A stretch of DNA of 64,000 nt, taken from NCBI RefSeq assembly GCF_002954355.1, contig NZ_MQVV01000012.1, positions 62,001 through 126,000 of the forward strand, written 5' to 3'. The stretch is from Nonlabens tegetincola. Lineage in GTDB: Bacteria; Bacteroidota; Bacteroidia; Flavobacteriales; Flavobacteriaceae. The notes beneath the pieces were generated by a model. That model was not told where the DNA came from. It ran no database searches and worked only from the letters and a program-made list of their open reading frames with translations. How positions within the stretch are numbered: position 1 is the first letter of the stretch; every line of letters starts with the position of its first letter. The translations under genes were made by a program, and so were the position numbers. Shown in pieces: positions 2,067-60,770 of the stretch.

Positions 2067-3349
2067 TGAGGATATTCAAATTTGGTGGAGCATCGGTTAA
2101 AGATGCAAATGGTGTAAGAAATGTAGTTAACGTATTGCGTATTACTGGATTTCGTGATTTAGGAGTGGTAGTTTCAGCAATGGGTAAAACAACAAACGCT
2201 CTTGAAGAAATACTTGCACGATATCAAAAAAATGATAATTCTTATCTAAAATTGATTGATAAACTCTACGAGCAACATAATGAAGTTATTGTAGAGTTAG
2301 AAGAGGTTACAGATTTCATAAATGAGGATGAGGTATTACGCTTTCGCGAAAGCGGAATAAAAAATAAACTTAAAGGAATTATTGAAGCTTTAAAGGGCGA
2401 GTTGTTACGTAATAAAACAAAGAACTACAGTTTTTTATACGATCAAGTCGTAAGTCATGGAGAACTTATTTCAACTAAAATTGTTGCAGCTTTTTTAAAT
2501 GCCTGTAACATTCCTGTGCAATGGGTGGATGCAAGAGAATTAATTAAAACTGATACTAAGTACCGGGATGCTGGAGTGCAATGGCAGGAAACAGAAAATG
2601 CTATTAAAAATATAAGTGGCTCCTCGTTCCTTACTCAAGGATTTATAGGAAGCGATGACAATGGTTTTACAACCACGCTAGGTAGAGAAGGAAGCGATTA
2701 TACAGCTGCTATCCTTGCATATTGTCTGGATGCCGAAAGTGTCACTATATGGAAAGATGTTCCTGGTGTTCTAAACGCAGATCCTAGAGTGTTTCATGAC
2801 ACTGTTTTGCTAGAAAAAATCCCATACAACGAGGCTATTGAATTAGCATTTTATGGAGCGAGTGTCATCCATCCTAAAACTTTACAGCCTTTACAAAGAA
2901 AGAGTATACCACTACATGTGAAGTCCTTTTTAAATCCTAAAGAAAACGGGTCAACGATTACTCACTCAAATACCTTATTACCTGAAATTCCTTGCTATAT
3001 CGTTCGTAAGCATTTGATTTTTTTAAGAGTTTCTTCTAGAGATTTTAGCTTTATAGGTGAAGGAAATATTTCGGAAATATTTCACGAGTTGAGCGAGGCT
3101 AAAATGCAGGTAGGTTTATTACAAAATTCGGCAATAAGTTTTTCAATTTGTGTTGAAGATAAATACAGTCTAATAAATGTTCTATTGTCTAGATTACAAG
3201 AACGTTACGACGTAAGCGTGGTAAAGAATGTTGCTTTATATACGATTAGACATTATAATGGTGAAAAAGTAGCTAGTATTGAAAATGAGCAGCAGGTATT
3301 ACTAAAACAACGCACACAAGAAACCTTGCAGGTTGTCGTTAAACAATAG
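2066..3349 (+). CDS. lysC: Aspartate kinase, monofunctional
   Basis: Phosphorylates aspartate, the first step toward lysine, threonine and methionine. The 427-residue protein starts with the amino-acid-kinase motif KFGGASVKD (5-13), has TTLGREGSDYTAA near residue 213 and WKDVPGVLNADPRV near 230, and ends in ACT-like regulatory sequence (about 305-400). There is no homoserine dehydrogenase domain, unlike ThrA/MetL. The dispersed 16-bp palindrome lies at 2339-2354 and encodes RFRES at residues 92-96, in a region that is not part of the active site. It is coupled to the GNAT gene upstream by a one-base overlap. Feedback control by amino acids is known for the family but not shown here. Confidence 0.92.
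   Translation: MRIFKFGGASVKDANGVRNVVNVLRITGFRDLGVVVSAMGKTTNALEEILARYQKNDNSYLKLIDKLYEQHNEVIVELEEVTDFINEDEVLRFRESGIKNKLKGIIEALKGELLRNKTKNYSFLYDQVVSHGELISTKIVAAFLNACNIPVQWVDARELIKTDTKYRDAGVQWQETENAIKNISGSSFLTQGFIGSDDNGFTTTLGREGSDYTAAILAYCLDAESVTIWKDVPGVLNADPRVFHDTVLLEKIPYNEAIELAFYGASVIHPKTLQPLQRKSIPLHVKSFLNPKENGSTITHSNTLLPEIPCYIVRKHLIFLRVSSRDFSFIGEGNISEIFHELSEAKMQVGLLQNSAISFSICVEDKYSLINVLLSRLQERYDVSVVKNVALYTIRHYNGEKVASIENEQQVLLKQRTQETLQVVVKQ
2339..2354. repeat. Dispersed 16-bp palindrome, copy 1 (in aspartate kinase)
   Basis: Exact CGCTTTCGCGAAAGCG. It is in frame as RFRES, residues 92-96 of the kinase. Confidence 0.95.
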
Positions 3350-3366
3350 TGACTTAACATTTATAG

Positions 3367-3374
3367 TATATTTG
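3367..3374 (+). promoter_or_regulatory. -7 promoter box for the OlsF-like gene
   Basis: TATATTTG matches the Bacteroidota TAnnTTTG consensus 36 bases before the ATG at 3410. No clear -33 TTG is seen at the usual distance. Confidence 0.55.
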
Positions 3375-3409
3375 TGAGTCAATCTATTAATTGACCAGGA
3401 CTTTATTTT

Positions 3410-5743: not shown

Positions 5744-6139
5744 TTACTGTTTTTCAAATAATTCTTCTTGCTTAGGTTCCCACAATTCGACTTTCCTACC
5801 ATCACAATCTATGATCCAAGCAAATTTACCGTAATCAAATTCCTGCATATCTCCTTCTTGTTGAATGCCAGAATTTTGTAAGTCTGCTAATAATTCTATA
5901 AGATTATCAACACGATAATTAATCATGAATTTTTGCTCTTTTGGGTAGTAAGTAGTATCTGCAGGAAAAGGACTCCACTGTTGACTAGCTTTGGGTTCTC
6001 TTTTTACTTCTTCTGACATAAAAAAAGTACATCCATATTGATCAGTATTTAATCCCAAATGTTTTTGATACCATTGTTTTGTTCTTTCAGGATCGTTACA
6101 AACAAAAAATATTCCTCCTAATCCAGTTACTTTAGCCAT
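5744..6139 (-). CDS. VOC-family (glyoxalase/bleomycin-resistance fold) protein
   Basis: A 131-residue single VOC domain beginning MAKVTGLGGIFFVCNDPERTKQWY, the usual opening for this fold, and ending in DGRKVELWEP with the typical terminal Glu. The ATG at 6139 is preferred over an upstream ATG at 6193 because homology begins there and the extra residues lie inside the upstream gene. It overlaps the 2-hydroxyacid dehydrogenase by 8 bases, so it is translationally coupled. Substrate and enzymatic activity cannot be told from sequence. Confidence 0.82.
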   Translation of the reverse strand: MAKVTGLGGIFFVCNDPERTKQWYQKHLGLNTDQYGCTFFMSEEVKREPKASQQWSPFPADTTYYPKEQKFMINYRVDNLIELLADLQNSGIQQEGDMQEFDYGKFAWIIDCDGRKVELWEPKQEELFEKQ

Positions 6140-7070
6140 GATTCTTAATGATTTTATCGGCAATAACTTCTGCCAATTTATACTTTGATTCAATCGTCCA
6201 TCCAGCCACGTGAGGACTCAATATCACATTTTTCATACTTATAAGCTCTTTAAACTCTGGTGGCATGGTATCATTTTCAAATAATGATGTAAAACTACTC
6301 TTTTCAAATTCTAGTACGTCTAATCCAGCTCCTAATATCTTTTTACTCCTCAAGGCCGTGACTAAATCCTTAGTGACAACCGCCTTTCCTCTTGCAGTGT
6401 TAATTAGATAGAACGCTTTCGCGAAAGCGTTAATAAAATCTTCATTCACCATTCCTATCGTTAGATCAGTTTGTGGTGTGTGCAATGAGAGAACATCTGC
6501 CTGTTGCTGTAATTCCTCAAGGGTTACCTGGCTGGCATTTTCATCTTGTAAACCTGACTTTAAATCATGAAAAATCACCTTGCAGTCAAACCCTTTAAGT
6601 TTTTTGGCAAATGCTTTACCCATATTCCCGTAACCTATTAATCCAATGGTTTTTCCATCTACCTCGATGCCGCGATTTTCTTCTCTTTGCCAAAGGCCGT
6701 TGCGCACCTCATGATCTGCCGTATGTAGTTTATTAAAAAGGGCTAGTAACATTCCTAGTGAGTGCTCACCTACTGCATTGCGGTTACCTTCAGGTGCGTT
6801 ATAGCATACTATTCCCAACTTGCTTGCGGTTTCAAGATCAATGTTTTCTAATCCAGCACCTATTCTTCCTATAAACTTAAGATTCTTGGCCTTCTTTAGA
6901 AAGGTTTGATCAATAGGGAATCTACTACGTACGATTAATCCATCGTACTGTTCAACTGTTTTTTCAACTTCTGCTTTTGCAGAGTTAAAATCACATTCAT
7001 TTTGAAATCCAAAATCAGACAGTTTCTGAATCAAAATAGGGTGGTTCTCGTCTAGATGTAAAACCTTCAT
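6132..7070 (-). CDS. D-2-hydroxyacid dehydrogenase, phosphoglycerate dehydrogenase-like
   Basis: A 312-residue NAD-dependent dehydrogenase. It shows GRIGAGLENID (substrate domain), the Rossmann motif IGYGNMGKAFAKKLKGF followed by an acidic residue, HTPQTDLTIGMV, the INTARGKAVV strand and the SPHVAGWT catalytic-His segment. It lacks the C-terminal ACT domain of long SerA enzymes. It most likely makes 3-phosphohydroxypyruvate for serine or acts on a related hydroxyacid; which is not certain. The dispersed palindrome encodes AFAKA at residues 215-219, just before the conserved YLINTARG strand, apparently without changing the usual spacing. Confidence 0.88.
   Translation of the reverse strand: MKVLHLDENHPILIQKLSDFGFQNECDFNSAKAEVEKTVEQYDGLIVRSRFPIDQTFLKKAKNLKFIGRIGAGLENIDLETASKLGIVCYNAPEGNRNAVGEHSLGMLLALFNKLHTADHEVRNGLWQREENRGIEVDGKTIGLIGYGNMGKAFAKKLKGFDCKVIFHDLKSGLQDENASQVTLEELQQQADVLSLHTPQTDLTIGMVNEDFINAFAKAFYLINTARGKAVVTKDLVTALRSKKILGAGLDVLEFEKSSFTSLFENDTMPPEFKELISMKNVILSPHVAGWTIESKYKLAEVIADKIIKNHG
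6414..6429. repeat. Dispersed 16-bp palindrome, copy 2 (in 2-hydroxyacid dehydrogenase)
   Basis: Exact CGCTTTCGCGAAAGCG. Read on the minus strand it encodes AFAKA, residues 215-219. Confidence 0.95.
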
Positions 7071-9315: not shown

Positions 9316-10314
9316 ATGATTCTTATCACAGGAGCAACTGGATTATTAGGAGGACATTTGTTATATCGCTTTCGCGAAAGCGCAACACAAATAATCGCCA
9401 TTTTTAGAACAGAGAGTAGCAAGGATAAAGTACGCCGCATTTTTGAATCGTACGACAAAGAAAGTGGACATCTTATTGAAAATTTTAATTGGGTAAAGGC
9501 TGATATTTTGGACGTGCCTAGTTTGAACCTTGTCTTTAACAATGTTAATCAAGTATATCACTGTGCAGCGGCTATTGAAGCAAATAATTTTGAAGAACTT
9601 GAAAAGATAAATGTCACTGGAACTGCTAATGTTATTAATACGGCATTGCACCACAAAGTAGAAAAATTTTGTCACGTTAGTAGTATAGCCGCTTTAGGAG
9701 ATGCTCTGGCAGGAAAACCAACTAGCGAGGAAGACTTCTTTAATTTGGACGGACTTAATAGTGATTATGGCATTACAAAATATGGTGCCGAAATGGAGGC
9801 CTGGCGTGCTACTCAAGAAGGTATGAAGGTTATAATTGTCAATCCTGGAGTTATTCTAGGCGAAGGTGATTTTAATTCAGGATCGGGTAAGTTAATATCT
9901 AGAACAGCTGGCGGGAATAAATTTTATACTACGGGTAGTAGTGGTTTTATAGATGTACGTGATGTTGTGCATTACATGGTTAATCTCATGGAAAGTGATG
10001 TGGAAAATGAGCGTTTTATCCTAGTGTCTAACAATCTTAATTACAAAACTGTTCTTGATCAAATAGCAGGTCATTTAAAGGTAAAAAAGCCTAATATCAA
10101 ATTAAGCGCATGGTTTTTACAGTTTCTATCTATACTATCTCAGCCTATAGGCTGGTTAGGAGGTTCAAGTTTAACTAGTGCCACAGTTAAGAGTCTCACT
10201 AGTGAAACGTATTATAGTAACGATAAAATAAAAGCTGTCTTCCCGAATTATGAGACCAAGCATTTTGATCAAACCCTACAAAGGGTTACAACTTTTTATA
10301 AGAATCTAAATTAA
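9316..10314 (+). CDS. NAD-dependent epimerase/dehydratase (extended SDR)
   Basis: A 332-residue extended short-chain dehydrogenase. The NAD-binding motif TGATGLLGG is at residues 5-13, the catalytic Ser region is HVSSIAALG and the YxxxK pair is in YGITKYGAE (near residue 156). The variable C-terminal half gives no clear substrate; a sugar-nucleotide, dihydroflavonol-reductase-like or sterol-like substrate is possible. The dispersed palindrome encodes RFRES at residues 18-22, in the first helix directly after the glycine motif. Its 3' end overlaps the convergent DUF4296 gene by 4 bases. Confidence 0.85.
9367..9382. repeat. Dispersed 16-bp palindrome, copy 3 (in SDR gene)
   Basis: Exact CGCTTTCGCGAAAGCG. 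In frame as RFRES, residues 18-22. Confidence 0.95.
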
Positions 10315-14284: not shown

Positions 14285-14300
14285 CGCTTTCGCGAAAGCG
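14285..14300. repeat. Dispersed 16-bp palindrome, copy 4 (intergenic)
   Basis: Exact CGCTTTCGCGAAAGCG, 13 bases after the hemD stop and 15 bases before the terminator stem. Confidence 0.95.
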
Positions 14301-16424: not shown

Positions 16425-16477
16425 AAAATTTTCTTTTGATTATTATCTATGTACTTTGGTCTAAAATTACAACTCAT

Positions 16478-17842
16478 ATGCGTCATATCTTAGTAATCGG
16501 AGCAGGAAAATCAACAGGTGTCCTATTAGATTATTTAAAAGAAAAATCTGAAACTCATCAATTGTTTATCACTGTAGGTGATAAGGATATAGACCAGGCA
16601 TTGAGGTTGACTCACGGACATAAAAACTGTGAGGCGATAGCGCTAGATGTTTTTAATGCCGCAGATAGAAAGACGCAAATTGAAAAGGCTGATATCGTTG
16701 TCTCTATGTTGCCAGCTAGATTTCATATTGAAGTGGCAAAGGATTGTTTGAAGCTCGAGAAAAATATGGTTACCGCAAGTTATGTGAGTGAAGAAATGCA
16801 AGAACTTCACGATGATGTGGTGAAAAAGGGACTTGTGTTCATGAATGAGATTGGTGTTGACCCAGGAATTGATCATATGAGCGCCATGCAGGTTATCGAT
16901 AAAATCAAAAAACAAGGTGGAAAAATGTTGCTTTTTGAATCGTTTACTGGTGGATTAGTTGCACCAGAACATGATGATAATTTATGGAATTACAAGTTCA
17001 CGTGGAATCCTAGAAATGTGGTCACTGCTGGTCAAGGTGGTGCTGCAAAATTTATACAAGAAGGAACTTACAAATACATACCCTATAACCGACTTTTTAG
17101 GAGAACCGAGTTTCTTGATGTAGAAGATTATGGAAGGTTTGAAGCTTATGCAAACCGCAATAGCTTGCATTATCGTGAAATTTATGGCTTAGACGACGTT
17201 CTTACTCTATATCGTGGTACTATGAGAAGAGTAGGATTTAGTAGGGCTTGGAATATGTTTGTCCAACTGGGAATGACCGATGATACTTACCTCATGGAAG
17301 GTTCTGAAAACATGTCTTATCGAGATTTTGTAAATAGCTTTTTACCGTATTCACCAACTGATAGCGTAGAGCTCAAAATGCGCAATGAGCTTAAAATTGA
17401 TCAAGATGATATAATGTGGGATAAACTATTAGAGCTAGATCTTTTTAGTTCTACTAAAATGATAAGTCTAAAAAATGCAACTCCTGCACAAATTCTTCAA
17501 TATATCTTACAGGATTCTTGGACCTTGGAAGAAGGTGAAAAGGACATGATAGTTATGTATCACAAATTTGGATATGAACTTGATGGTGAGCGCAAACAAA
17601 TAGATAGTACCATGGTTTGTCTGGGTGAAGGTGACTATAAAACAGCAATGGCCAAAACAGTGGGATTACCAGTTGCAATTGCTACTTTAAAAATACTTGA
17701 TAAAGAAATTACAAATCCAGGTGTGCAAATTCCAATTTGCAGTTCTGTTTACGAACCAATTTTAAAAGAATTAGAGTCTTATGATATTCGCTTTCGCGAA
17801 AGCGAAACAAAATACCTAGGTTATAATCCTATTCATCGTTAG
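16478..17842 (+). CDS. Saccharopine dehydrogenase-like oxidoreductase
   Basis: A 454-residue NAD(P)-dependent enzyme opening with HILVIGAGKSTGVLLDYL, a Rossmann motif. It has the LYS9-type catalytic region (MNEIGVDPGIDHMSAMQVID, about 120-140) and ESFTGGLVAPEHDDNLWNYKFTWNPRNV. It likely splits or forms saccharopine or a related product in lysine breakdown; direction and cofactor are not visible. The ATG at 16478 is used because an upstream frame start at 16436 precedes the TACTTTGG promoter-like box. The dispersed palindrome encodes RFRES at residues 438-442, near the C-terminus. It overlaps the convergent LuxE-like gene by 4 bases. Confidence 0.88.
   Translation: MRHILVIGAGKSTGVLLDYLKEKSETHQLFITVGDKDIDQALRLTHGHKNCEAIALDVFNAADRKTQIEKADIVVSMLPARFHIEVAKDCLKLEKNMVTASYVSEEMQELHDDVVKKGLVFMNEIGVDPGIDHMSAMQVIDKIKKQGGKMLLFESFTGGLVAPEHDDNLWNYKFTWNPRNVVTAGQGGAAKFIQEGTYKYIPYNRLFRRTEFLDVEDYGRFEAYANRNSLHYREIYGLDDVLTLYRGTMRRVGFSRAWNMFVQLGMTDDTYLMEGSENMSYRDFVNSFLPYSPTDSVELKMRNELKIDQDDIMWDKLLELDLFSSTKMISLKNATPAQILQYILQDSWTLEEGEKDMIVMYHKFGYELDGERKQIDSTMVCLGEGDYKTAMAKTVGLPVAIATLKILDKEITNPGVQIPICSSVYEPILKELESYDIRFRESETKYLGYNPIHR
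17789..17804. repeat. Dispersed 16-bp palindrome, copy 5 (in saccharopine dehydrogenase-like gene)
   Basis: Exact CGCTTTCGCGAAAGCG. In frame as RFRES, residues 438-442. Confidence 0.95.
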
Positions 17843-23656: not shown

Positions 23657-23687
23657 TAGGCATTAAGTAACCTTTAAATTATTGTAT

Positions 23688-24356
23688 TTGGGAAGTAAAA
23701 ATAAGCTTAAGAGATTTAAAGAAAATGAGACCTTTGACAATGTAATTCAGCCTACTAGGGATGAAATGTTAAACAATTTTACTCTTAAAGGAAGGTGGAA
23801 TGAACACTTCGGTAATGATAAACCCATAACTCTTGAATTAGGTTGTGGTAAAGGTGAATACACTCTTGCACTAGCAAGAAAATATCCAGATCGTAATTTT
23901 ATTGGTATCGATATAAAAGGAGCTAGATTTTGGCGTGGTGCAAAGACTGCTCTGGAAGAAGGATTAGATAACGTAGCTTTTTTACGTACTCAAATTGAAT
24001 TAGTAGATTGCGCTTTCGCGAAAGCGGAAATAGCAGAAATCTGGATCACATTTCCAGATCCTCAAATTAAATACAAACGAACTAAGCACCGCATGACAAA
24101 TGATGCTTTTCTAGCCAAGTACAAGCATGTTTTACAGGAAGACGGTGTGATGCACTTGAAAACAGATTCAGAGTTTATGCATGGCTACACCATAGGATTG
24201 TTACATGGTCGTGGTGATGAAATTCTTTATGCTCATCATGATATTTACTCAAATACTGAGGCTCCTGAAGAGGTAGTATCTACACAAACCTTTTATGAAA
24301 AACAATACTTAGAAGTAGGAAAGCCTATTACTTATTTGAAATTTAAGATTAAGTAA
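23688..24356 (+). CDS. trmB: tRNA (guanine-N7)-methyltransferase
   Basis: Methylates G46 of tRNA using S-adenosylmethionine. The SAM site is LELGCGKGEYTLALARKYPDRNFIGIDIKG (about residues 47-76) and the catalytic region is WITFPDPQIKYKRTKHR. The start is taken as the TTG at 23688, giving MGSKNKLKRFKENETF, the usual flavobacterial opening; a TTG two codons earlier is also open. The dispersed palindrome encodes AFAKA at residues 109-113, just before the conserved WITFPDPQ. The stop overlaps the LysE-family start by one base. Confidence 0.93.
   Translation: MGSKNKLKRFKENETFDNVIQPTRDEMLNNFTLKGRWNEHFGNDKPITLELGCGKGEYTLALARKYPDRNFIGIDIKGARFWRGAKTALEEGLDNVAFLRTQIELVDCAFAKAEIAEIWITFPDPQIKYKRTKHRMTNDAFLAKYKHVLQEDGVMHLKTDSEFMHGYTIGLLHGRGDEILYAHHDIYSNTEAPEEVVSTQTFYEKQYLEVGKPITYLKFKIK
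24011..24026. repeat. Dispersed 16-bp palindrome, copy 6 (in trmB)
   Basis: Exact CGCTTTCGCGAAAGCG. In frame as AFAKA, residues 109-113. Confidence 0.95.
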
Positions 24357-27721: not shown

Positions 27722-27737
27722 CGCTTTCGCGAAAGCG
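27722..27737. repeat. Dispersed 16-bp palindrome, copy 7 (intergenic)
   Basis: Exact CGCTTTCGCGAAAGCG, 21 bases after the gdhA stop and before its terminator. Confidence 0.95.
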
Positions 27738-30144: not shown

Positions 30145-30867
30145 ATGCTAGTAAACACTGCAGCACTCGTGCTTTCTACGGTCAAATATGGTGAAAGCGA
30201 TATCATAGCAAAATTATTCACTCGTGAATTAGGAGTTCAATCCTATATGATAAAAGGAGTGCGCAAATCGCGTAAAGGCAAGTTGCGTATTTCATTCTTT
30301 CAACCACTTACACAATTAGAGATTCAAACCAATCATAAAGGAAAGGGTAATTTAGAGTATATTAAAGAAGCTGGGGTAAGAGTACCGTATTCAAATATTC
30401 ACACTGATATTGTCAAAGGCAGTATTGCTTTGTTTTTCAGCGAGGTGCTCAGTCAGTTATTGATAAATGATCAACCAGATGAATCCCTCTTTGATTATTT
30501 AAACTACGCTTTTGAATTTTTAGACGTGACCGATCATGTCGCAAATTTTTCTATCAAAGTTCTTCTGGATACAAGTGTTATAATGGGATTTGGTATTGAT
30601 CAGGCTTCAAACGATCAACCCTACCTTAATTTGCTTACTGGTGTTTTTGATGATAATGGATTACAACCTCATCACACTACTCAAAGTGAGGCCAGTCTCA
30701 TAAAACAATTTATGGGCATAAAATTTGATGAGCTAGGTACTATAAAAATGAATAGATCTAGTCGTAATTCCTTACTTAGTTTGGTGATCGACTATTTTCA
30801 AATACATTTGCAAGTCTTTAAAAAACCATCGTCCTTGGCGATATTAAAACAGCTGTTTGATTCTTGA
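30145..30867 (+). CDS. recO: DNA repair protein RecO
   Basis: A 240-residue recombination mediator that helps load RecA with RecR. The N-terminal OB-fold is seen in TAALVLSTVKYGESDIIAKLFTRELGVQSYMIKGVRKSRKG-type sequence over about residues 5-46, with the basic GVRKSRKGK stretch. The C-terminal helical domain follows. No zinc-finger Cys cluster is present, as is usual in Bacteroidota. It sits 5 bases after porZ and overlaps the TonB receptor start by 3 bases (TTGA). Confidence 0.93.
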   Translation: MLVNTAALVLSTVKYGESDIIAKLFTRELGVQSYMIKGVRKSRKGKLRISFFQPLTQLEIQTNHKGKGNLEYIKEAGVRVPYSNIHTDIVKGSIALFFSEVLSQLLINDQPDESLFDYLNYAFEFLDVTDHVANFSIKVLLDTSVIMGFGIDQASNDQPYLNLLTGVFDDNGLQPHHTTQSEASLIKQFMGIKFDELGTIKMNRSSRNSLLSLVIDYFQIHLQVFKKPSSLAILKQLFDS

Positions 30868-33266
30868 TTAGAATAATAATTTTACTAGTTTTTTTAAGTG
30901 CATTTAATGCTTTTTCTCAAACAGTTACTGTTGTTAATAGTGAGACCGGTGAACCTGCAGTAAATGTTGCCATCTATAATAAATCAAAGAAGTTAAGCAC
31001 CTATACTAATATTGATGGTAAAGCTAGACTGGATAAATTTGATCTAGATGAAAATTTATATTTTCAAGCTATTTCTTACTTGACTATACGATTGACAAAA
31101 AATCAAATTATTGCAAATGATAATTTAGTAGGACTTACACCTAGATCAGAGACTATAGATCCTATTGTTATTTCTGCTTCAAAATTTGAACAGCGAGAGA
31201 GAGACATACCTCAAAAAATAATAGCTATTCCAGGTTTAAAAGTTCAAGAGTATCAACCACAAACCACAGCAGATTTTTTGGAGCAAACAGGACAAGTATT
31301 TGTGCAAAAATCTCAACAAGGTGGTGGTAGTCCTATGATACGAGGCTTTTCAACTAATAGATTATTAATTACTGTTGATGGAGTGCGCATGAACAATGCG
31401 ATTTTTAGAGGAGGAAACCTTCAAAACATCATATCAATAGACCCATTAAGCATTGATCGCAGCGAGGTGATTCTAGGTCCAGGCAGCGTGGTGTATGGTA
31501 GTGATGCTATAGGTGGTGTAATGAATTTTTATACAGCACAACCCAAATTTGCTCAAGATTCTTCCATGGTAAGTGGTCGTGTAATGGGAAGATATTCATC
31601 GGCAAATAATGAAAATACCGTTCATGCTAGGTTTAATTATCACGGTGATCAATGGGCCACTGCTACTAGTATAAGCTTAAATTATTTTGATGATCTACGC
31701 ATGGGAGAACACGGTCCAGACGATTATTTAAGATTACAATATCAAACTAGAGCAAATCAGCAGGATGTAGTAGTTGATAATCCAGACTCCAGAGTACAAA
31801 TTTCTAGTGGTTATGATCAAATCAATTTATTACAAAAAGTAAGTTATGAGCCTAGTTTAAAATGGCGATTAGATGCCAGTCTTATTTACACAGCTACTAG
31901 TGACTATTCTAGGTATGATGCATTGACACGCTTTCGCGAAAGCGGAGAACCCAGAAATGCGGCATGGTATTATGGGCCACAAAAATGGTTGCTCGCACAT
32001 GGAGTTGCTACGCACAGAGGTAATGGGAAATGGTATGATAAATTGGTTATCAGCCAGTCCTTTCAAAAAGCTGAAGAAAGTCGTAATACTAGATCGTTCC
32101 AAAGTAATTCGTTATTCCGAAATAAAGAACAGGTAAATATTTGGAGCACCAGTGTAGATGCAGAGCGACGAGATAGAGAAAATAATGTTCTTTTCTATGG
32201 TGTCGAGTTTATTCACAACCGCGTAAATTCTAAGGGTAGTGAAGTTAATATAGAAACTAATGAGGTCCAGGCTGCGGCCTCTAGATATCCTGATGGTGCC
32301 TCATGGCGCTCACTCGCTGCGTATTTTAACTATCAATGGAGCATCAAAAAAAATCTAACATTGCAATCTGGATTGCGTTATAATCACATCTGGCTTAATG
32401 CAGATTTTGATCAAAGGTTTTTTGATTTCCCTTTTCAAAGCGCAACAGTTAACACAGGAGCACTTACCGGTGCAGCTGGATTAACATACTTACCTAATCC
32501 ATCATGGGAACTCCGAGCAAATTTTAGTACGGCATTTAGAGCTCCAAACGTAGATGATGTTGGAAAAATATTTGACCCAGATCCGGGAACTCTTATTGTA
32601 CCAAATCCTGACGTAGAATCTGAATACTCCTATAATACCGAACTGGGTGTAAAAAGAAAATGGAAAAACGTACAGTTCGAGATAGCAGGCTATCATACCT
32701 TCTTGAAAGACGCTTTGGTGCCTAGACCTTTCTCTTTTAATGGTCAAGATCAAATTGATTATCAAGGGGAAACTAGAAACGTATTTGCTATCCAAAATGG
32801 GCAAGAGGCTAGGATTTGGGGAATCGAAGTTGCAGGTAAATGGAATTTAGAGAATAACTGGTCCATTAAAGGAACTTATACTCATGTAAATGGTGAGCAA
32901 ACAGAAGAGGATGGTAGTAAAGAGAACGTGAGGCATGTTGCACCAGATTTTGGAAGACTTGAAATTGAGAAAACTGGCTCTAGATGGAATGCAGCTGCTT
33001 GGGTGATGTTCAATGGAGAGTTAGGATTTAACGATCTAGACCCTACACAACGCAATAGACCTTATTTGTACGCTCTAGATGAAGATGGTAATCCTTATTC
33101 ACCTAGATGGTACACGTTTAATGTGCGAGGTAATTACCAGTTAAAGGACGATATAACGGCAACAGTAATTATTGAAAATATAACCGATCAACGTTATCGA
33201 ACTTACTCTAGTGGTATTGCTGCTGCAGGTCGCAATTTGATTGTTGCACTTAGATTTGACTTTTAA
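30864..33266 (+). CDS. TonB-dependent outer-membrane receptor
   Basis: An 800-residue receptor. It starts at a TTG overlapping the recO stop; the signal peptide is IIILLVFLSAFNAFSQ. A carboxypeptidase-regulatory-like domain (about 20-95) precedes the plug (QEYQPQTTADFLEQTGQVFVQKSQQGG through GPGSVVYGSDAIGGVMNF, about 125-215) and a 22-strand barrel ending in a terminal aromatic F (ALRFDF). The plug and RNYQL-type barrel resemble iron/heme or vitamin receptors, but the ligand is not identifiable. The dispersed palindrome encodes RFRES at residues 356-360 in a barrel loop. It is in the porZ-recO-pdeM run. Confidence 0.92.
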   Translation: MIRIIILLVFLSAFNAFSQTVTVVNSETGEPAVNVAIYNKSKKLSTYTNIDGKARLDKFDLDENLYFQAISYLTIRLTKNQIIANDNLVGLTPRSETIDPIVISASKFEQRERDIPQKIIAIPGLKVQEYQPQTTADFLEQTGQVFVQKSQQGGGSPMIRGFSTNRLLITVDGVRMNNAIFRGGNLQNIISIDPLSIDRSEVILGPGSVVYGSDAIGGVMNFYTAQPKFAQDSSMVSGRVMGRYSSANNENTVHARFNYHGDQWATATSISLNYFDDLRMGEHGPDDYLRLQYQTRANQQDVVVDNPDSRVQISSGYDQINLLQKVSYEPSLKWRLDASLIYTATSDYSRYDALTRFRESGEPRNAAWYYGPQKWLLAHGVATHRGNGKWYDKLVISQSFQKAEESRNTRSFQSNSLFRNKEQVNIWSTSVDAERRDRENNVLFYGVEFIHNRVNSKGSEVNIETNEVQAAASRYPDGASWRSLAAYFNYQWSIKKNLTLQSGLRYNHIWLNADFDQRFFDFPFQSATVNTGALTGAAGLTYLPNPSWELRANFSTAFRAPNVDDVGKIFDPDPGTLIVPNPDVESEYSYNTELGVKRKWKNVQFEIAGYHTFLKDALVPRPFSFNGQDQIDYQGETRNVFAIQNGQEARIWGIEVAGKWNLENNWSIKGTYTHVNGEQTEEDGSKENVRHVAPDFGRLEIEKTGSRWNAAAWVMFNGELGFNDLDPTQRNRPYLYALDEDGNPYSPRWYTFNVRGNYQLKDDITATVIIENITDQRYRTYSSGIAAAGRNLIVALRFDF
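31929..31944. repeat. Dispersed 16-bp palindrome, copy 8 (in TonB receptor)
   Basis: Exact CGCTTTCGCGAAAGCG. In frame as RFRES, residues 356-360. Confidence 0.95.
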
Positions 33267-36246: not shown

Positions 36247-36254
36247 TATCTTTG
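36247..36254 (+). promoter_or_regulatory. -7 promoter box for mfd
   Basis: TATCTTTG, followed by C, 18 bases before the proposed TTG start at 36273. It overlaps an earlier in-frame TTG at 36252. Confidence 0.65.
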
Positions 36255-36272
36255 CGACTCAATACAAGGATT

Positions 36273-39200
36273 TTGAGTTATACTTCTATATTAGAGCGTT
36301 TTAAAAGCTTATCACAAACCAACGTTTTAAATGACCTAGTTCAAGATGCAAAGGGCTATCATACTATTAGTGGATTAAACGGTAGTAGTTATTCCATGTT
36401 GATAAAGGTTCTTTTTGATCAGGCAGAAAAACCGTTTTTACTTATATGTGATGATAAGGAACAAGCAGCGTATTATTTAAATGATCTAGAACAGAGTATA
36501 GGAGAAGATCACGTGCTATTTTATCCAGGTAGTTATCGCAGGCCCTATCAAATTGAGGAGACTGACAACGCCAATGTATTGTTACGAGCTGAGGTCCTCA
36601 ATAGGATAAACTCTAGAAAAAAACCAGCGGTAATCGTCACTTATCCAGATGCTTTGTTTGAAAAGGTTGTGACTCGGAAAGAACTTGAAAAAAATACCCT
36701 TAAAATTTCGGTTGGCGATCAAATCACCGTTGATTTTGCTAACGAAGTTTTATTCGAGTACGAGTTTAAAAGAGTTGATTTTGTGACTGAGCCAGGAGAA
36801 TTTTCCCTAAGAGGAGGAATATTAGATGTGTTCTCTTTTAGTAACGACGAGCCCTATCGAATTGAGTTTTTTGGAAATGAAATCGATTCCATTCGAGTTT
36901 TTGATGTTGAAACCCAATTAAGTAAGGAACAGGTTAAAAAAATCTCAATTATTCCAAATGTTGAACACAAAAAACTTGAAGAAACTAGAGAGAGTTTCCT
37001 TAAATACCTGTCTAATAAGACCAGTATTTTTGCTTTTCACTTAGAACTACTCTACGGTCGATTAGACTCGCTTTTCGCGAAAGCGGAACAAGAATATAAC
37101 AATTTGCAAGGCGAAATACGTCAATTATCGCCACAGGAAATTTTTGCAAATTCTGAGCTTATCAAAAAGCAGCTAAAAGAGTATAATCACTTTGAATTTG
37201 TTGCCAATCAAGGAGAAATAGCATTTAAGACACAGCCACAACCATCTTTTAACAAGCAGTTTGAGTTATTGATTGAAAATCTTGAAACTAACAAGGCAGA
37301 TGGTATCAAGAACTATATCTTTTGTGGTACCGCACAACAAGCAAAACGTTTTCATGACATTTTTGACGACATGAATGCTACCGTCGAGTATGAAACCGTA
37401 GTAGCTCCTTTATATCGTGGATTTATAAGTTATGATTTGCGTATTGCATGTTATACCGATCATCAAATATTTGAACGATATCATAAGTTTCATCTCAAAA
37501 ATGGATACGCAAAAAAACAAGCGATTACCTTAAAGGAACTTAACTCGCTCGAGATTGGAGATTATGTTACTCATATAGATCATGGAATAGGGAAATTTGG
37601 TGGATTACAAAAGGTCGATCAAAATGGTAAACAACAAGAGGCCATTAAACTTATTTATGGTGAACGAGATATCTTATATGTATCAATTCATTCCTTACAT
37701 AAAATTACCCGATTTTCAAGTAAAGATGGTAAACCACCAAAAATTTACAAATTAGGTAGTCCAGCCTGGAAGAAACTGAAACAAAAAACTAAGAAAAAGG
37801 TAAAGGAAATTGCTTTTGATCTTATCAAACTTTACGCAAAACGTAAATCGAAAAAAGGATTTCAGTATGCGCCAGATGGTTATTTACAAAATGAACTCGA
37901 GGCTAGTTTTATCTATGAAGATACACCAGATCAAAGTGCAGCCACCGCCGATGTAAAGGCCGATATGGAAAGCGATAAACCAATGGATAGATTGGTTTGT
38001 GGTGATGTAGGTTTTGGTAAGACAGAGGTAGCCATAAGAGCTGCCTTTAAAGCAGCGGTTAATGGAAAACAAGTCGCTGTTCTTGTGCCTACAACTATTT
38101 TAGCTTTTCAGCATGCTAAATCTTTTAAAGAACGATTGTCGGATTTACCTGTGAAGGTAGATTACTTAAACCGTTTCAGAACAGCAAAAGAACGACGAGC
38201 AGTTCTTGATGGACTTGCCGATGGAAGTATCGATATCGTAATAGGCACCCATCAACTTGTAAATAAATCTGTTCGTTTTAAGGATCTCGGACTTTTGATT
38301 ATTGATGAGGAGCAAAAATTTGGAGTTGCAGTAAAAGATAAATTAAAAACCCTTAAAGAAAATATCGATACGCTCACGTTAACAGCGACACCTATTCCTA
38401 GAACACTTCAGTTCTCATTAATGGCTGCTCGTGATTTAAGTGTTATTAAAACACCACCGCCTAATAGACATCCTGTCGAAACAAAGGTGGTTCGTTTTAG
38501 TGAAGAGGTAATTCGTGATGCTGTGAGTTATGAAATCTCAAGAGGCGGACAAGTGTTTTTTGTCCATAATCGAATCGAGAATATAAAGGAAGTAGCAGGA
38601 ATGATTCAAAGATCAGTACCCGATGCAAAAATTGGTATAGGTCATGGTCAAATGGATGGTAAAAAATTAGAGGAACTCATGCTTTCATTTATGAACGGTG
38701 AGTTTGATGTACTCGTTTCAACAACCATAATTGAAAGTGGTCTGGATGTCCCAAATGCTAATACGATTTTTATAAATAACGCTAATAACTTTGGCTTGTC
38801 TGATCTACATCAAATGAGAGGTAGAGTAGGGCGTAGTAATAAAAAAGCCTTCTGTTACTTCATAACGCCACCCTATGAGGTTATGACTGATGACGCACGT
38901 AAACGTATTCAAGCAATTGAAACATTTTCTGATTTAGGAAGTGGTTTCAATATCGCAATGAAAGATCTTGAAATACGTGGAGCTGGAGACATTTTAGGTG
39001 GTGAACAAAGCGGTTTTATGAATGAAATTGGTTTTGATACCTATCAAAAAATCCTTGCCGAAGCTATTTCTGAATTAAAAGAAAATGAATTCAAGGATCT
39101 TTATATTGAGGATGAAGTAGATAAAAAACCTGTTACTGATGTCAATATAGATACTGATTTTGAATTATTATTTCCAGATGATTATATCAACTCCATTACA

Positions 39201-41808: not shown

Positions 41809-41824
41809 CGCTTTCGCGAAAGCG
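41809..41824. repeat. Dispersed 16-bp palindrome, copy 10 (intergenic)
   Basis: Exact CGCTTTCGCGAAAGCG, directly downstream (minus strand) of the terminator at 41832-41861. Confidence 0.95.
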
Positions 41825-45843: not shown

Positions 45844-47472
45844 TTATTGAAATTGGTAGAATCTACTCAAGATTTGTTGTGTGCTAGCATCGTGCTGGCC
45901 AGTGGAGACGTTCTCTATGTCTTGTAAAACAGCATCAGCTAGAACTTTTCCTAATTCTACACCCCATTGGTCATAGCTATAAATGTTCCATATAACACCT
46001 TCTGTAAAGATTTTGTGTTCATACATCGCTATTAATTTGCCTAGGCTAGCTGGTGTAAGCTCATCTATAAGTAGGGTAGTAGTAGGTTTGTTCCCTTCAA
46101 AAACTTTGTATGGTAATAGAAATTCTATCTCGTCTTGGTTTTTTCCTGCAGTTTTTAGATCGTCAAAGGCTTCTTCTTTTGTCTTACCATTCATTAATGC
46201 TTCTGTTTGTGCAATAAAGTTTGCCATAAGCTTATTGTGATGATCTTGATGTTGGTATTTCGCTTTCGCGAAAGCGATAAAATGAGCAGGAATCAGTTTT
46301 GATCCTTGATGAATAAGTTGGAAAAAGGCATGTTGAGAATTTGTTCCAGGTTCTCCCCAAACGATATTACCAGTTTCATAATTCACTCTAGAACCGTTAC
46401 GATCTATAGTTTTACCATTACTTTCCATTATAGCCTGTTGTAGGTAAGCTGGTAATCGATGTAAATATTGAGTGTATGGAATTACTGCCTCGCTTTGAGC
46501 CTTATAAAAGTTGTTGTACCAAATAGTTAATAAAGCTAATTGAACAGGTATGTTATTTTCAAATGAAGCTGTTTTAAAATGTTCATCCATTTGTGATGCT
46601 CCATCAAGTAGTTGTTGGAAGTTGTGAGTGCCCACACTCAATGCTATACTCATTCCTACCGTGCTCCACAAAGAAAATCTACCACCTACCCAATCAAACA
46701 TTGGAAAAATATTTTCTTCCTCTATACCGAAATCTACAGCTCTATTTACATTACTGCTTACTGCTATAAAATGTGTTCCTACAGCATCTTGATTCACTTG
46801 TTGTGTAAACCAATTACGTATAGTAGTGGCATTGGATAAGGTTTCCTGAGTCCCAAAGGATTTTGAAACTATTACAAAGAGTGTGGTACTAGGATTAATC
46901 GTTTTTAAAACTTCTTCTACGTGATCACCTTCAACATTAGAAACAAAAAGAAGGTTGAGGTGATTCTTATAGGCTTGTAAAGCCTCAGTAATCATTACTG
47001 GACCTAGATCGCTACCACCTATTCCTATATTTACAACGGTATCAAAAGCTGTCCCACTAGCAGTTTTAAATTCGCCGCTTATTACTTTGTCTACAAATTC
47101 AAACATTTTCTGTTTGCTTGTAACAGCAGCGTCCACGAAATGTTGTGCTCCTTCATGAGCTTGTTGTGCTCGTAGAGCAGTGTGAAGGACCGACCTTCCT
47201 TCAGTTGCGTTAATAGGCTTGCCAGAAAAATACGCTTCTATGGCTGCATCTAGATGAGTTTCACGAGCAAGTTGAACTAATAGATCTTTTGTAGTTGAAT
47301 CCCATAAGTTTTTTGAAAAGTCAACATAGAAATCTTCAAAAATTGTGGTGAATTCTTGAGCTCTATTGCTGTTGTCTTTAAAAGCCTGTTTCAGGTTTAA
47401 ACCTTGGTTGTTATTATAATGTTCTTCTAGCTTTTTCCAAGCTTCAGTTTGAGTAGGATTGATGTTTTTCAT
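45844..47472 (-). CDS. pgi: Glucose-6-phosphate isomerase
   Basis: Interconverts glucose 6-phosphate and fructose 6-phosphate. The 542-residue protein has the sugar-phosphate motif IGIGGSDLGPVM (about 148-159), VGGRFSLWSTVGMSIAL (about 264-280), the catalytic Glu in YETGNIVWGEPGTNSQHAF (about 366-384) and the terminal QWGVELGK. The dispersed palindrome encodes AFAKA at residues 400-404, in the HFIAFAKAKYQHQDHH stretch; from memory of the E. coli enzyme this is a length-neutral position. It follows the M23 peptidase by 14 bases, probably in the same transcript. Confidence 0.96.
   Translation of the reverse strand: MKNINPTQTEAWKKLEEHYNNNQGLNLKQAFKDNSNRAQEFTTIFEDFYVDFSKNLWDSTTKDLLVQLARETHLDAAIEAYFSGKPINATEGRSVLHTALRAQQAHEGAQHFVDAAVTSKQKMFEFVDKVISGEFKTASGTAFDTVVNIGIGGSDLGPVMITEALQAYKNHLNLLFVSNVEGDHVEEVLKTINPSTTLFVIVSKSFGTQETLSNATTIRNWFTQQVNQDAVGTHFIAVSSNVNRAVDFGIEEENIFPMFDWVGGRFSLWSTVGMSIALSVGTHNFQQLLDGASQMDEHFKTASFENNIPVQLALLTIWYNNFYKAQSEAVIPYTQYLHRLPAYLQQAIMESNGKTIDRNGSRVNYETGNIVWGEPGTNSQHAFFQLIHQGSKLIPAHFIAFAKAKYQHQDHHNKLMANFIAQTEALMNGKTKEEAFDDLKTAGKNQDEIEFLLPYKVFEGNKPTTTLLIDELTPASLGKLIAMYEHKIFTEGVIWNIYSYDQWGVELGKVLADAVLQDIENVSTGQHDASTQQILSRFYQFQ
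46261..46276. repeat. Dispersed 16-bp palindrome, copy 11 (in pgi)
   Basis: Exact CGCTTTCGCGAAAGCG. Read on the minus strand as AFAKA, residues 400-404. Confidence 0.95.
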
Positions 47473-48734: not shown

Positions 48735-49733
48735 TTATTTTGTGTTAAGTGCGTGTGTAACCCATTGCTTACCCCATTCGTCGTGTTCTTGCTGTGTCCA
48801 TAACGATGGGAAGAAACTAATTTTCTGAAAACTAGGCGGTAAGAACTGTTTCCAGTTTGTACCACCAGTTGCTTGAACAGCTTGTCCTTCTTTGCGTAAA
48901 TACCTGTGCGCTGCACCCATGTGCATGAGTAACCAGTTGATATTTGCATTTTGATCTAGCATGCGCAAGGCCTCTATAAGGTCCTCTGTTTTTTCTTCAT
49001 CTGGTAATTGTAAAAATTGCTGGTTTAAATTAGTATTTTGAACTTCACCTGCGATTCTTAAAAAACGTGGGGTATATCTTTTTTCAAACTGTTTTAAGGT
49101 AAGTGTTTTTTCACCGGTATGCATGTCAATACCGCCTTTTTTCCAGTAGATGTTTTCGTATAGTTCTTGATTTGTTACTGATTCTGCTTTCGCGAAAGCG
49201 TAATCCTGCACATTATCTTTATTGCGATAGTTATCACGCACAGTAGGATGGACCAGGTTGATAAGATCAGTGCTGTAAAATTCAATCATTCTAAATTGAG
49301 CGCTTTGGAAACCGCTTGCAGGAAGTAGCGACATACGGAATTTTAAAAACTGCTCACGTTCCATTCCTCGTACCATCACATCAAATGAATTGATCAAGAC
49401 TGTGAAGTAACGATTAATTCGCTTTGCCTTTTCAGCAAAAAAAGCACCTGTTAACTGCTCATTTTCTATAATTTGTTTCTGCTCGTGAATGATAAGCTTA
49501 AAATACAGTTCAGTTATTTGATGATAACCGATAAATATCATTTCATCGGGAAAATGTGTAGCAGGAACTTGTAGGCTCAAAAGTGTGTCTAGTCTTATGT
49601 AATCCCAGTAAGTAATGTACTGGTCGTATAACAAACCATCGAGGTAGGATAACATATCCTGTCCAGAATTCTTGAACTTCTCCTGAAGAAGTTCGATACG
49701 CTTTGCGATTTCTGGACTAATTTCTTGTGACAT
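48735..49733 (-). CDS. kynA: Tryptophan 2,3-dioxygenase family protein
   Basis: Heme enzyme that opens the indole ring of tryptophan to N-formylkynurenine. The 332-residue protein shows YWDYIRLDTLLSLQ, then FIGYHQITELYFKLIIHEQ (about 67-85) with the distal His, and LLMHMGAAHRYLRKEG...ATGGTNW (about 270-300) holding the proximal His and the GTGGT-like loop. It is somewhat shorter and more divergent than the classical enzyme, so substrate specificity is probable rather than certain. A palindrome copy encodes AFAKA at residues 179-183. It is first in a kynA-M23-pgi run with a clear promoter. Confidence 0.9.
   Translation of the reverse strand: MSQEISPEIAKRIELLQEKFKNSGQDMLSYLDGLLYDQYITYWDYIRLDTLLSLQVPATHFPDEMIFIGYHQITELYFKLIIHEQKQIIENEQLTGAFFAEKAKRINRYFTVLINSFDVMVRGMEREQFLKFRMSLLPASGFQSAQFRMIEFYSTDLINLVHPTVRDNYRNKDNVQDYAFAKAESVTNQELYENIYWKKGGIDMHTGEKTLTLKQFEKRYTPRFLRIAGEVQNTNLNQQFLQLPDEEKTEDLIEALRMLDQNANINWLLMHMGAAHRYLRKEGQAVQATGGTNWKQFLPPSFQKISFFPSLWTQQEHDEWGKQWVTHALNTK
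49185..49200. repeat. Dispersed palindrome, 15/16 copy 12 (in kynA)
   Basis: TGCTTTCGCGAAAGCG differs from the consensus only at the first base. It encodes AFAKA in frame. Confidence 0.9.
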
Positions 49734-57937: not shown

Positions 57938-57953
57938 CGCTTTCGCGAAAGCG
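57938..57953. repeat. Dispersed 16-bp palindrome, copy 13 (intergenic, extended)
   Basis: Exact CGCTTTCGCGAAAGCG. The symmetry extends to 24 bp (57934-57957). It lies between the divergent uvrC and the small membrane gene. Confidence 0.95.
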
Positions 57954-58298: not shown

Positions 58299-58300
58299 TT

Positions 58301-58600: not shown

Positions 58601-58660
58601 ATTTATTGTAACTTTTTAATCTAAAAAGCTACCTATCAATGAACTAATCAACAACCTGCT

Positions 58661-60049: not shown

Positions 60050-60079
60050 TGTTGCTGCAAAACTCTTACACGTAATCGG

Positions 60080-60087
60080 TACTTTTG
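60080..60087 (+). promoter_or_regulatory. -7 promoter box for the O-methyltransferase gene
   Basis: TACTTTTG, followed by C, 27 bases before the ATG. Confidence 0.55.
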
Positions 60088-60113
60088 CGTGAATATAATT
60101 CCAAAGTATTAGC

Positions 60114-60770
60114 ATGTTTTTTTTACCTCAAGATCTAGATGATTATATAGTAGCTCATTCTCAAAATGAACCTCAAATTTTAAAAGATCTTAGTCGAGAA
60201 ACGTATCAAAAAGTGCTTCAGCCTATAATGCTCTCTGGTCCTTATCAAGGTCGAGTGTTAAGTATGATTTCTAGTTTGATAAGCCCCAAACGTGTGCTAG
60301 AAGTTGGTACTTTCACAGGTTATTCTGCACTATGTCTTGCCGAAGGTATGCCAGAAAACAGCGATCTAGTTACCATAGATATCAATGAAGAGTTAGAATC
60401 CTTATGTAGTAGGTATTTTTTACGCTTTCGCGAAAGCGTAAAGAAAATTAATTTCATTCAAAAAATAGGTCCAGCGCTGGATATTATACCCGAATTAGAA
60501 GGCTATTTTGATTTAGTGTTTATTGATGCTGATAAGCCAAACTATGTAAACTACTTTCATCAAATTATGAAGAAAGTGCGGCCTGGTTCTTTAATAATTT
60601 CTGATAATGTTTTGTGGCACGGTAAAGTGGTCGAAACTGTAAAGAAAAAAGATCTATCGACACCTGTGCTTCTCGAGTATAATAAGTTGTTGAAGGAAGA
60701 TCCTAGGTTGCAAACTGTTCTATTGTCGGTGCGTGATGGTCTTACTCTTTCTCGTGTAATAAAGAGCTAG
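60114..60770 (+). CDS. SAM-dependent O-methyltransferase (caffeoyl-CoA/catechol O-methyltransferase family)
   Basis: A 218-residue methyltransferase. The SAM-binding loop is VLEVGTFTGYSALCLAEGMP (about 63-82), with the metal-site Asp in VFIDADKPNYVNYF (about 139-152) and DNVLWHGKVV (about 168-177). The family methylates catechols or related phenols with a divalent metal. The palindrome encodes RFRES at residues 104-108, between the SAM and metal motifs. The last 51 bases overlap the convergent PAP2 gene. Confidence 0.9.
   Translation: MFFLPQDLDDYIVAHSQNEPQILKDLSRETYQKVLQPIMLSGPYQGRVLSMISSLISPKRVLEVGTFTGYSALCLAEGMPENSDLVTIDINEELESLCSRYFLRFRESVKKINFIQKIGPALDIIPELEGYFDLVFIDADKPNYVNYFHQIMKKVRPGSLIISDNVLWHGKVVETVKKKDLSTPVLLEYNKLLKEDPRLQTVLLSVRDGLTLSRVIKS
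60423..60438. repeat. Dispersed 16-bp palindrome, copy 14 (in O-methyltransferase)
   Basis: Exact CGCTTTCGCGAAAGCG, with symmetry extending to 20 bp. In frame as RFRES, residues 104-108. Confidence 0.95.

What the first reader, a model, noticed from the sequence alone, without database searches (positions are those of the whole stretch)
2339..60438. A 16-bp perfect palindrome repeated 14 times across 64 kb
CGCTTTCGCGAAAGCG occurs exactly at 2339, 6414, 9367, 14285, 17789, 24011, 27722, 31929, 41809, 46261, 57938 and 60423, and nearly exactly at 37069 (one extra T) and 49185 (first base differs). That is about one copy per 4.6 kb; random expectation for a given 16-mer in 64 kb is far below one. 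It is GC-rich in an AT-rich sequence, so it is maintained against base composition. Copies are spread evenly on genes of unrelated function. It is not an array and has no transposase. Candidates: a DNA-uptake-type signal, a HIP1-like palindrome, a methylase target (core TCGCGA), or a chromosome-organising protein site. I do not know a named element with this sequence.
Basis: seen in the sequence. Interest (0 to 1): 0.85.

Follow-up and report, generated by a model that had tools for sequence, protein, structure and literature searches.

The report
Genome-wide palindromic signal in marine flavobacteria
The chromosomes of two groups of marine bacteria (Nonlabens and Dokdonia) carry the same 16-letter DNA palindrome every five or so thousand letters, evenly spaced and protected from mutation, which points to an unknown protein that reads it all along the chromosome.

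Summary
CGCTTTCGCGAAAGCG occurs 12 times exactly, plus two variants, in the window and 464 times in the 3.03 Mb genome, against 0 for the reversed control. All 18 genomes searched of the genus inferred to be Dokdonia have 138-711 copies. Among 299 family genomes three genera are rich. The selected unit is GCTTTCGCGAAAGC with preferred outer C/G and symmetric arms that avoid C and favour T every third base. Sites are evenly spaced, 5-9 times denser between genes, and kept at orthologous Nonlabens positions (14 of 16). Two Nonlabens phages have none; integrating phages carry them. Nonlabens and Dokdonia share few sites (2 of 19, 3 of 22). Universal C5-methylase, added ParB, shared AddB and hairpin selection are not supported; 8 of 9 rich genomes lack a type IV pilus/T2SS motor. 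Best reading: a chromosome-wide site for an unidentified symmetric DNA-binding protein; uptake drive is the main rival.

The parts
2339..2354 (.). exact 16-bp palindrome, inside ORF 2066-3349
6414..6429 (.). exact palindrome, inside ORF 6132-7070 (2-hydroxyacid dehydrogenase)
9367..9382 (.). exact palindrome near the 5' end of ORF 9316-10314; conserved exactly in two other Nonlabens genomes
14285..14300 (.). exact palindrome between convergent genes; conserved exactly in two other Nonlabens genomes
17789..17804 (.). exact palindrome near the 3' end of ORF 16436-17842 (saccharopine dehydrogenase); conserved exactly in two other Nonlabens genomes
24011..24026 (.). exact palindrome inside ORF 23682-24356; conserved exactly in two other Nonlabens genomes
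27722..27737 (.). exact palindrome between tandem genes, upstream of a PorZ-like gene; conserved in G010, not alignable in G242
31929..31944 (.). exact palindrome inside a TonB-dependent receptor ORF 30864-33266; not present at the aligned place in G010 or G242
37069..37085 (.). variant with one extra T, inside mfd-like ORF 36252-39617
41809..41824 (.). exact palindrome between tandem genes
46261..46276 (.). exact palindrome inside ORF 45844-47472; kept in G242, replaced in G010 by TGCTTTTGCAAAAGCA
49185..49200 (.). variant with first base T, inside ORF 48735-49733
57938..57953 (.). exact palindrome between divergent genes
60423..60438 (.). exact palindrome inside ORF 60114-60770

Best explanation
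It is a chromosome-wide array of single sites for one unidentified two-fold symmetric DNA-binding protein. The protein reads a 14-bp palindromic core (GCTTTCGCGAAAGC), prefers C/G outside it, and senses both arms over a total footprint of roughly 50 bp. What is selected is coverage: about one site per 5 kb of resident DNA, with little value in a second site close by. Most likely the protein organises or maintains the chromosome (bridging, loop anchoring, or loading of another factor), and integrating phages carry sites because they live in such a chromosome. Shown: the motif, arms, spacing, conservation within Nonlabens, phage pattern and restriction to two lineages in the samples searched.
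For: Core is long and strict: of 112 TTTCGCGAAA in 544 kb of Nonlabens, 109 extend to 12 bp and 108 to 14 bp; one-mismatch copies fall at half-site positions 1 and 6 in 58 of 62 cases in Nonlabens plus Dokdonia (65 of 71 with g190). Arms: C is 2.3% (Nonlabens) and 6.2% (Dokdonia) at -3..-12 in intergenic sites against 14.7% and 15.2% background; T is higher at every third base (bootstrap). Even spacing: 1.0% of Nonlabens gaps are under 1.5 kb against 26% expected. Counts of 2-8 per 20 kb in 20 samples round a complete Dokdonia genome. Conservation in Nonlabens: 14 of 16 alignable sites exact between G242 and G010; 5 of 6 and 5 of 7 between the window and these. Density is 5.2 (Nonlabens) and 9.4 (Dokdonia) times higher between genes. 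In low-copy genomes 7 of the 16 one-mismatch copies listed hit other core positions against 4 of 62 in Nonlabens plus Dokdonia, Fisher P 0.0009. Integrating phages carry sites with proper arms; two Nonlabens phages carry none in 71 kb.
Against: Even spacing and non-coding excess are also features of DNA-uptake signals. A biased-recombination drive would explain hundreds of sites at different places in two lineages more easily than site-by-site selection. Conservation was not seen in the one Dokdonia pair compared: of 16 sites of G206 only 3 aligned to G299 and none was exact (1, 2 and 11 changes), and none of 24 aligned the other way. In g190 spacing is not clearly even, intergenic excess is only 1.6-fold and TCGCGA outside the motif is 24 against 14.5 expected. 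The viral contigs were picked for holding the motif, so their density is biased upward; only two sequenced Nonlabens phages were available.
Confidence: 0.42

Rival explanations
1. It is a DNA-uptake-type self-recognition signal that accumulates by molecular drive: cells take up motif-bearing DNA preferentially and recombine it in, so one site per DNA fragment is favoured.
For: Even spacing, non-coding excess and tolerance inside genes resemble uptake sequences as described in passages of PMC1939737. Riemerella columbina prefers its own DNA (passages of PMC7965970). Drive would explain why two lineages hold largely different site sets and why g190 relaxes the outer base.
Against: PF00437, the type IV pilus/T2SS motor family, is over its cut-off in only 1 of 9 rich genomes. 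The passages read say that known uptake sequences are not palindromes. Mu-like and other integrating phages carry sites.
Confidence: 0.2
2. It is a bidirectional Chi-like recombination signal: AddAB or another helicase-nuclease stops degrading at the site and RecA loads on the G/T-rich arm.
For: Density is close to that of E. coli Chi (recalled, about 1 per 4.6 kb). The G/T-rich 5' arms with three-base periodicity suit RecA (recalled). The two phages without sites have annotated Erf and YqaJ-type recombination genes of their own. An AddB-like protein is in 20 of 20 genomes searched and an AddA-like second match in 16 of 20.
Against: Known Chi sites are 5-8 nt and oriented (recalled); this is a 14-16-bp palindrome. 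AddB-like proteins of Nonlabens do not group with those of Dokdonia, and poor genomes have them too.
Confidence: 0.1
3. It is a HIP1-like palindrome created or used through DNA methylation of an inner core.
For: Palindromic, hundreds of copies, deviations concentrated at the outer base as described for HIP1. In g190 TCGCGA outside the motif is 24 against 14.5 expected.
Against: TCGCGA outside the motif is at chance in the main genera: 35 against 30.6 in Nonlabens, 50 against 53.7 in Dokdonia. C5-methylase PF00145 is absent from 3 of 8 rich genomes tested. The unit is longer than any methylase site known to me (recalled). N4/N6 methylases were not tested.
Confidence: 0.08
4. It works as a nucleic-acid hairpin (terminator, cruciform, RNA element) or is a dispersed mobile repeat.
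For: The core can fold into a 6-bp stem with a 4-nt loop.
Against: Cognate arms fold worse than arms swapped between sites (-10.85 against -11.53; -11.04 against -11.74 kcal/mol); no clear pairing covariation; the downstream arm is A-rich, not T-rich; flanks return to background and no larger repeat unit was seen.
Confidence: 0.02

Closest known systems
HIP1 (GCGATCGC) and alternate HIPs of cyanobacteria
   Same: palindrome in very many copies over the genome, outer base most variable
   Different: 14-16 bp rather than 8 (extensions in PMC4390886 Table 3 reach about 12 bp); inner 6-mer not enriched alone in Nonlabens or Dokdonia; no universal C5-methylase; has long symmetric arms
DNA uptake sequences of Neisseriaceae and Pasteurellaceae
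   Same: even spacing, non-coding excess, tolerance in ORFs, related genus with a relaxed form
   Different: palindromic and symmetric; type IV pilus/T2SS motor over cut-off in only 1 of 9 rich genomes; present in integrating phages
parS / Noc-binding site (ParB family)
   Same: 16-bp palindrome for a dimer (recalled)
   Different: hundreds of sites; each of 8 rich genomes has one ParB_N match, G326 has two
Chi
   Same: density of one per about 5 kb (Chi density recalled)
   Different: palindromic, longer, no orientation; AddB-like proteins of the two lineages do not group
matS and SlmA sites
   Same: palindromic chromosome-organising sites (recalled)
   Different: no region of the sampled Dokdonia chromosome lacks or concentrates them

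Membership tests
HIP-type iterated palindrome | strong genome-wide over-representation of a perfect palindrome | tested here: met
   464 copies against 0 control
HIP-type iterated palindrome | methylase for an inner core present wherever the palindrome is frequent | tested here: inconclusive
   C5 type not met: PF00145 absent in G242, G314, G190 of 8 rich genomes tested; N4/N6 families not tested
HIP-type iterated palindrome | inner methylase core itself enriched | tested here: not met
   TCGCGA outside motif 35 vs 30.6 (Nonlabens) and 50 vs 53.7 (Dokdonia); 24 vs 14.5 in g190
DNA uptake sequence | even spacing and non-coding excess | tested here: met
   not clear in g190
DNA uptake sequence | type IV pilus or T2SS-like uptake motor | tested here: not met
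   PF00437 over cut-off in 1 of 9 rich genomes
DNA uptake sequence | biased uptake of motif DNA | not testable with these tools
   needs a transformation experiment
Chi | short, oriented sequence | tested here: not met
   14-16-bp palindrome
Chi | AddAB/RecBCD present and matched to the signal | tested here: inconclusive
   AddB-like in 20 of 20, AddA-like second match in 16 of 20 (names by domain and length); trees of the two lineages do not join; Chi-binding residues not examined
parS/Noc site | extra or altered ParB-family reader in rich genomes | tested here: not met
   one ParB_N match in each of 8 rich genomes, two in G326; HTH closely alike in the 12 of 20 rows that were truly ParB (5 rich, 7 poor)
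matS/SlmA/Noc regional sites | restricted to or excluded from the terminus | tested here: not met
   2-8 sites per 20 kb in all of 20 samples; ori and ter placed only by GC skew
Intrinsic terminator / RNA hairpin | paired arms or 3' T run | tested here: not met
Mobile repeat (REP, MITE) | longer homologous repeat unit | tested here: not met
   only compositional arms, near background beyond about 30 bp

The most novel reading that the evidence does not exclude
Nonlabens and Dokdonia acquired a DNA-binding protein horizontally, and their chromosomes then evolved several hundred evenly spaced copies of its roughly 50-bp site, largely at different places. It would be a new kind of whole-chromosome address system (residency mark or loop anchor) in bacteria, which integrating phages copy.
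Probability: 0.3. Interest if true: 0.9.

Novelty: new variant of a known kind. Interest (0 to 1): 0.74.

Why it matters
Genome-wide iterated signals are few (HIP1, uptake sequences, Chi, chromosome-organising sites), and the function of HIP1 is still open. Here the signal is long and strict enough to fish out its reader directly, occurs in culturable marine bacteria, and is found in two separate lineages, one with a sister genus that relaxes it. That makes the cause of such signals testable.

Tried and rejected
HIP-like methylation: C5-methylase family absent from three of eight rich genomes; no enrichment of the inner 6-mer outside the motif in Nonlabens or Dokdonia, though a mild one in g190. 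ParB/Noc reader: one ParB_N match in each of 8 rich genomes, two in G326. AddAB switch: AddB-like proteins in all 20 genomes searched, and those of Nonlabens do not group with Dokdonia. Hairpin or terminator: no clear covariation, cognate arms fold worse than swapped. Conserved-gene or ori-site reading of the low-copy genomes: several of their clustered copies lie in CusA/CzcA, TolC-like, CopA and TraN-like genes and look like transferred passengers. Same idea with another sequence in poor genomes: no comparable family in 20 loci of low-copy genomes or in 20 further 20-kb stretches; these are small samples. A listing of all 464 places was not available; the tool lists only the first.

Weak points: orthologous-site counts include duplicates. 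Three of the seven Dokdonia-to-g190 shared sites are one parAB site seen in overlapping or sister sequences, and G242/G010 rows repeat. In one search only 12 of 20 rows picked were ParB, the rest ParA or other. Loci of 'Flavobacteria bacterium BBFL7' were counted with Nonlabens on recall. The 16 one-mismatch copies of low-copy genomes are those listed; those of G051, G076, G287 and G100 were not listed. Rows dropped: near-duplicate flanks, sites too near a stretch end, and 8 viral stretches set apart by GC (one, L148, at GC 0.48) whose arms were checked as a group.
Full report
OBSERVATION. The window holds 12 exact copies of CGCTTTCGCGAAAGCG plus a copy with a changed first base (49185) and one with an extra T (37069); shuffles give 0.02. 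The window is contig C12:62001-126000 of a 3,028,293-bp, 21-contig genome with 464 exact copies and 0 of the reversed control, 600 within one mismatch.

HOST. G242, in the window's genus, has a first contig of 1,129,740 bp, the length of NZ_PTJE01000001 (Nonlabens xylanidelens); G206 has 483,439 bp, the length of NZ_REFV01000001 (Dokdonia sinensis). I infer that the window is Nonlabens and genus g206 is Dokdonia.

DISTRIBUTION AMONG GENOMES. Of 299 family genomes, 38 have any exact copy; five have over 100: three Nonlabens (464, 495, 579), one Dokdonia (630) and g190 (153); the rest have at most 13. With the 12-mer CTTTCGCGAAAG the five have 445-917, the rest at most 21, controls at most 3. 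All 18 genomes searched of genus g206 have 138-711. In 395 genomes of the phylum only the window's own is rich; the next highest count is 11. A genome deposited as Cytophagaceae SAT149 (G326) has 383 12-mers, but its AddB-like protein groups with Dokdonia (support 100/99). In an Mfd tree of 30 rows g190 is sister to Dokdonia (98/98), while Nonlabens sits in another clade (83/94) with poor genera. So the rich genomes seen fall into two lineages.

LOW-COPY GENOMES. In many of 20 fetched loci of low-copy genomes the copies sit at repeating positions in a few genes; others lie elsewhere. Six proteins with a site were scanned: three CusA/CzcA efflux pumps, a copper-type P-ATPase, and, below the models' own cut-offs, a TolC-like protein and a TraN-like conjugation protein. 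They look like passengers of horizontal transfer. Of the 16 one-mismatch copies listed for such genomes 7 hit positions other than 1 and 6 (my reading) against 4 of 62 in Nonlabens plus Dokdonia (6 of 71 with g190), Fisher P 0.0009 for 7 of 16 against 4 of 62. The motif seems to decay where nothing maintains it.

ANATOMY. In 544 kb of Nonlabens the nested counts are CGCG 405, TCGCGA 147, TTTCGCGAAA 112, 12-mer 109, 14-mer 108, 16-mer 98; the mismatch spectrum 0-5 is 98, 18, 5, 4, 7, 42 against 0, 0, 1, 5, 31, 95 for the control. Dokdonia (560 kb) gives 204, 185, 181, 139 for 10-, 12-, 14- and 16-mer. Variation is confined to the outer base and half-site position 6 in 58 of 62 one-mismatch copies. 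TCGCGA outside the motif is at chance in Nonlabens and Dokdonia (35 vs 30.6, 50 vs 53.7) and somewhat high in g190 (24 vs 14.5). In intergenic sites (40 Nonlabens, 69 Dokdonia after removal of near-duplicates) each arm shows the same outward pattern: T at -2 and -3, then T at about -6, -9 and -12, and C at 2.3% and 6.2% over -3..-12 against 14.7% and 15.2% background, fading by about -30. The T periodicity has a bootstrap interval above zero in Nonlabens, Dokdonia and (barely) g190; arms of phage sites and passenger sites show the same C deficit (8.7%, 8.3%), and 15 arms at hits in higher-GC viral contigs do not (38%). The arms do not clearly covary and cognate arms fold worse than swapped ones. 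This suggests a dsDNA dyad of about 50 bp, not a hairpin.

PLACEMENT. 12-mer gaps in Nonlabens have mean 4,968 bp, CV 0.45, and 1.0% lie under 1.5 kb against 26% expected; Dokdonia (two 80-kb regions) has CV 0.65 and 17% against 40%; g190, with 11 gaps, is not clear (0.82). In 20 samples of 20 kb from a complete Dokdonia chromosome, 12-mer counts have variance/mean 0.28 (P 0.00065) and 16-mer counts are 2-8 throughout; GC skew suggests ori near 0.7 Mb and ter near 2.2 Mb, and neither stands out, though I made no formal test. Density between genes is 0.80 per kb against 0.155 in ORFs in Nonlabens, and 1.94 against 0.206 in Dokdonia; for g190 (12 sites) the ratio is 1.6. All orientations of neighbouring genes are represented when genomes are pooled. 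Coding sites favour the frame that reads AFAKA (85 of 125; frames 0 and 2 hold 23 and 17).

CONSERVATION. G242 and G010 share 14 of 16 alignable sites exactly (18 in all) in regions of 84-90% identity; at 89% chance is 0.155 per site, P 4e-10, and at 92% flank identity P 5e-7. The window shares 5 of 6 alignable sites with G242 and 5 of 7 with G010 at about 72% identity; the other 6 and 5 of its 12 did not align. One loss in G010 is a synonymous rewrite of AFAKA. In the only Dokdonia pair compared, G206 and G299, 3 of 16 sites aligned and none was exact (1, 2 and 11 changes); none of 24 aligned the other way. By protein homology, 7 of 12 Dokdonia coding sites are shared with g190 and 4 of 7 the other way; Nonlabens-Dokdonia 2 of 19 and 3 of 22; Nonlabens-g190 1 of 3 each way (duplicates included). 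The two lineages thus hold mostly different sites. I read this as separate accumulation under the same reader; an ancestral system with turnover and many losses is not excluded.

PHAGES. 41 viral stretches hold the motif. 33 of them, from 22 contigs, have proper arms as a group, and some contigs share site and flank (L164, L165, L168, L177). These contigs were picked for holding the motif, so their density is biased upward. Ten proteins were scanned with Pfam and ten with PHROGs: a tyrosine integrase (L155), a serine recombinase (L166) and Mu-like portal, F and transposition proteins (L167, L187) show that at least three contigs are integrating phages. The Mu-like one has 6 sites on a 37-kb contig. 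Nonlabens phages P12024S and P12024L have none within three mismatches in 71 kb, where the Nonlabens 12-mer spacing predicts about 14; no integrase is annotated in them.

CANDIDATE READERS TESTED. C5-methylase PF00145: absent in G242, G314 and g190 of 8 rich genomes tested. ParB: one match in each of 8 rich genomes, two in G326. AddAB: AddB-like PDDEXK_1 proteins in 20 of 20 genomes, an AddA-like second match in 16 (names by domain and length); AddB-like proteins of Nonlabens do not group with Dokdonia. Type IV pilus/T2SS motor PF00437: over cut-off only in G242 and G215 of 20, so in 1 of 9 rich genomes.

LITERATURE. No held paper contains the 16-mer. Ten contain TTTCGCGAAA; by title and abstract start none concerns these genera (listing). 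Searches for Dokdonia or Nonlabens with 'palindrom' gave 5 and 7 papers, by title unrelated (listings). Fourteen papers hold 'highly iterated palindrom', most on cyanobacteria by title or abstract (listing). Of PMC4390886 I read the abstract, outline, passages and sections 8 and 13; of PMC1939737, PMC7965970 and PMC3630211 passages only. [quoted passage not shown] Facts on Chi, matS, SlmA, Noc and RecA preference are recalled.

VERDICT. The long strict core, symmetric arms, even coverage, site-level conservation in Nonlabens and presence in integrating phages fit best a chromosome-wide binding site for an unidentified symmetric protein (0.42). DNA-uptake drive is the main rival (0.20), weakened by the missing motor.

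Noticed in passing
G000 C10:164170 and C10:521166 (L329, L349): In the window's genome the AddB-like and AddA-like genes lie about 357 kb apart; where both were found in other genomes they lie about 5 kb apart. G010, G242, G087 and G042 showed only the AddB-like match.
   Followed up: partly
L023-L042: Palindrome-bearing metal-efflux and conjugation-type genes in many poor genera suggest transfer from motif-rich donors; the motif could serve as a tag of donor origin.
   Followed up: partly
G326 (PAUP01, L106, L341): A genome deposited as 'Cytophagaceae bacterium SAT149' groups with Dokdonia by its AddB-like protein, so its label is doubtful.
   Followed up: partly
window 46261-46276 in G010: The lost site became TGCTTTTGCAAAAGCA, itself a perfect palindrome; in the AFAKA frame the four changes are synonymous.
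   Followed up: no
L319 (Nonlabens phage P12024L) 16409-18674: Annotated oxygenase-domain protein, HMC glucosyltransferase and methyltransferase suggest modified DNA; its sister P12024S has other annotations there.
   Followed up: no
L389 9903-10372 (G345): Three near-identical copies of a sequence with ATTTCGAAAT in its middle, spaced about 230 bp: a local tandem repeat in another family.
   Followed up: no
L396 (G021) 9071, 16646, 17638: CCAATATTGG occurs three times in 20 kb (expected 0.02); flanks of the last two look partly alike, so perhaps a gene repeat.
   Followed up: partly
G242 C8:126205-127296: One Nonlabens genome has a full T2SSE-family ATPase over the cut-off that the other two searched lack.
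   Followed up: no
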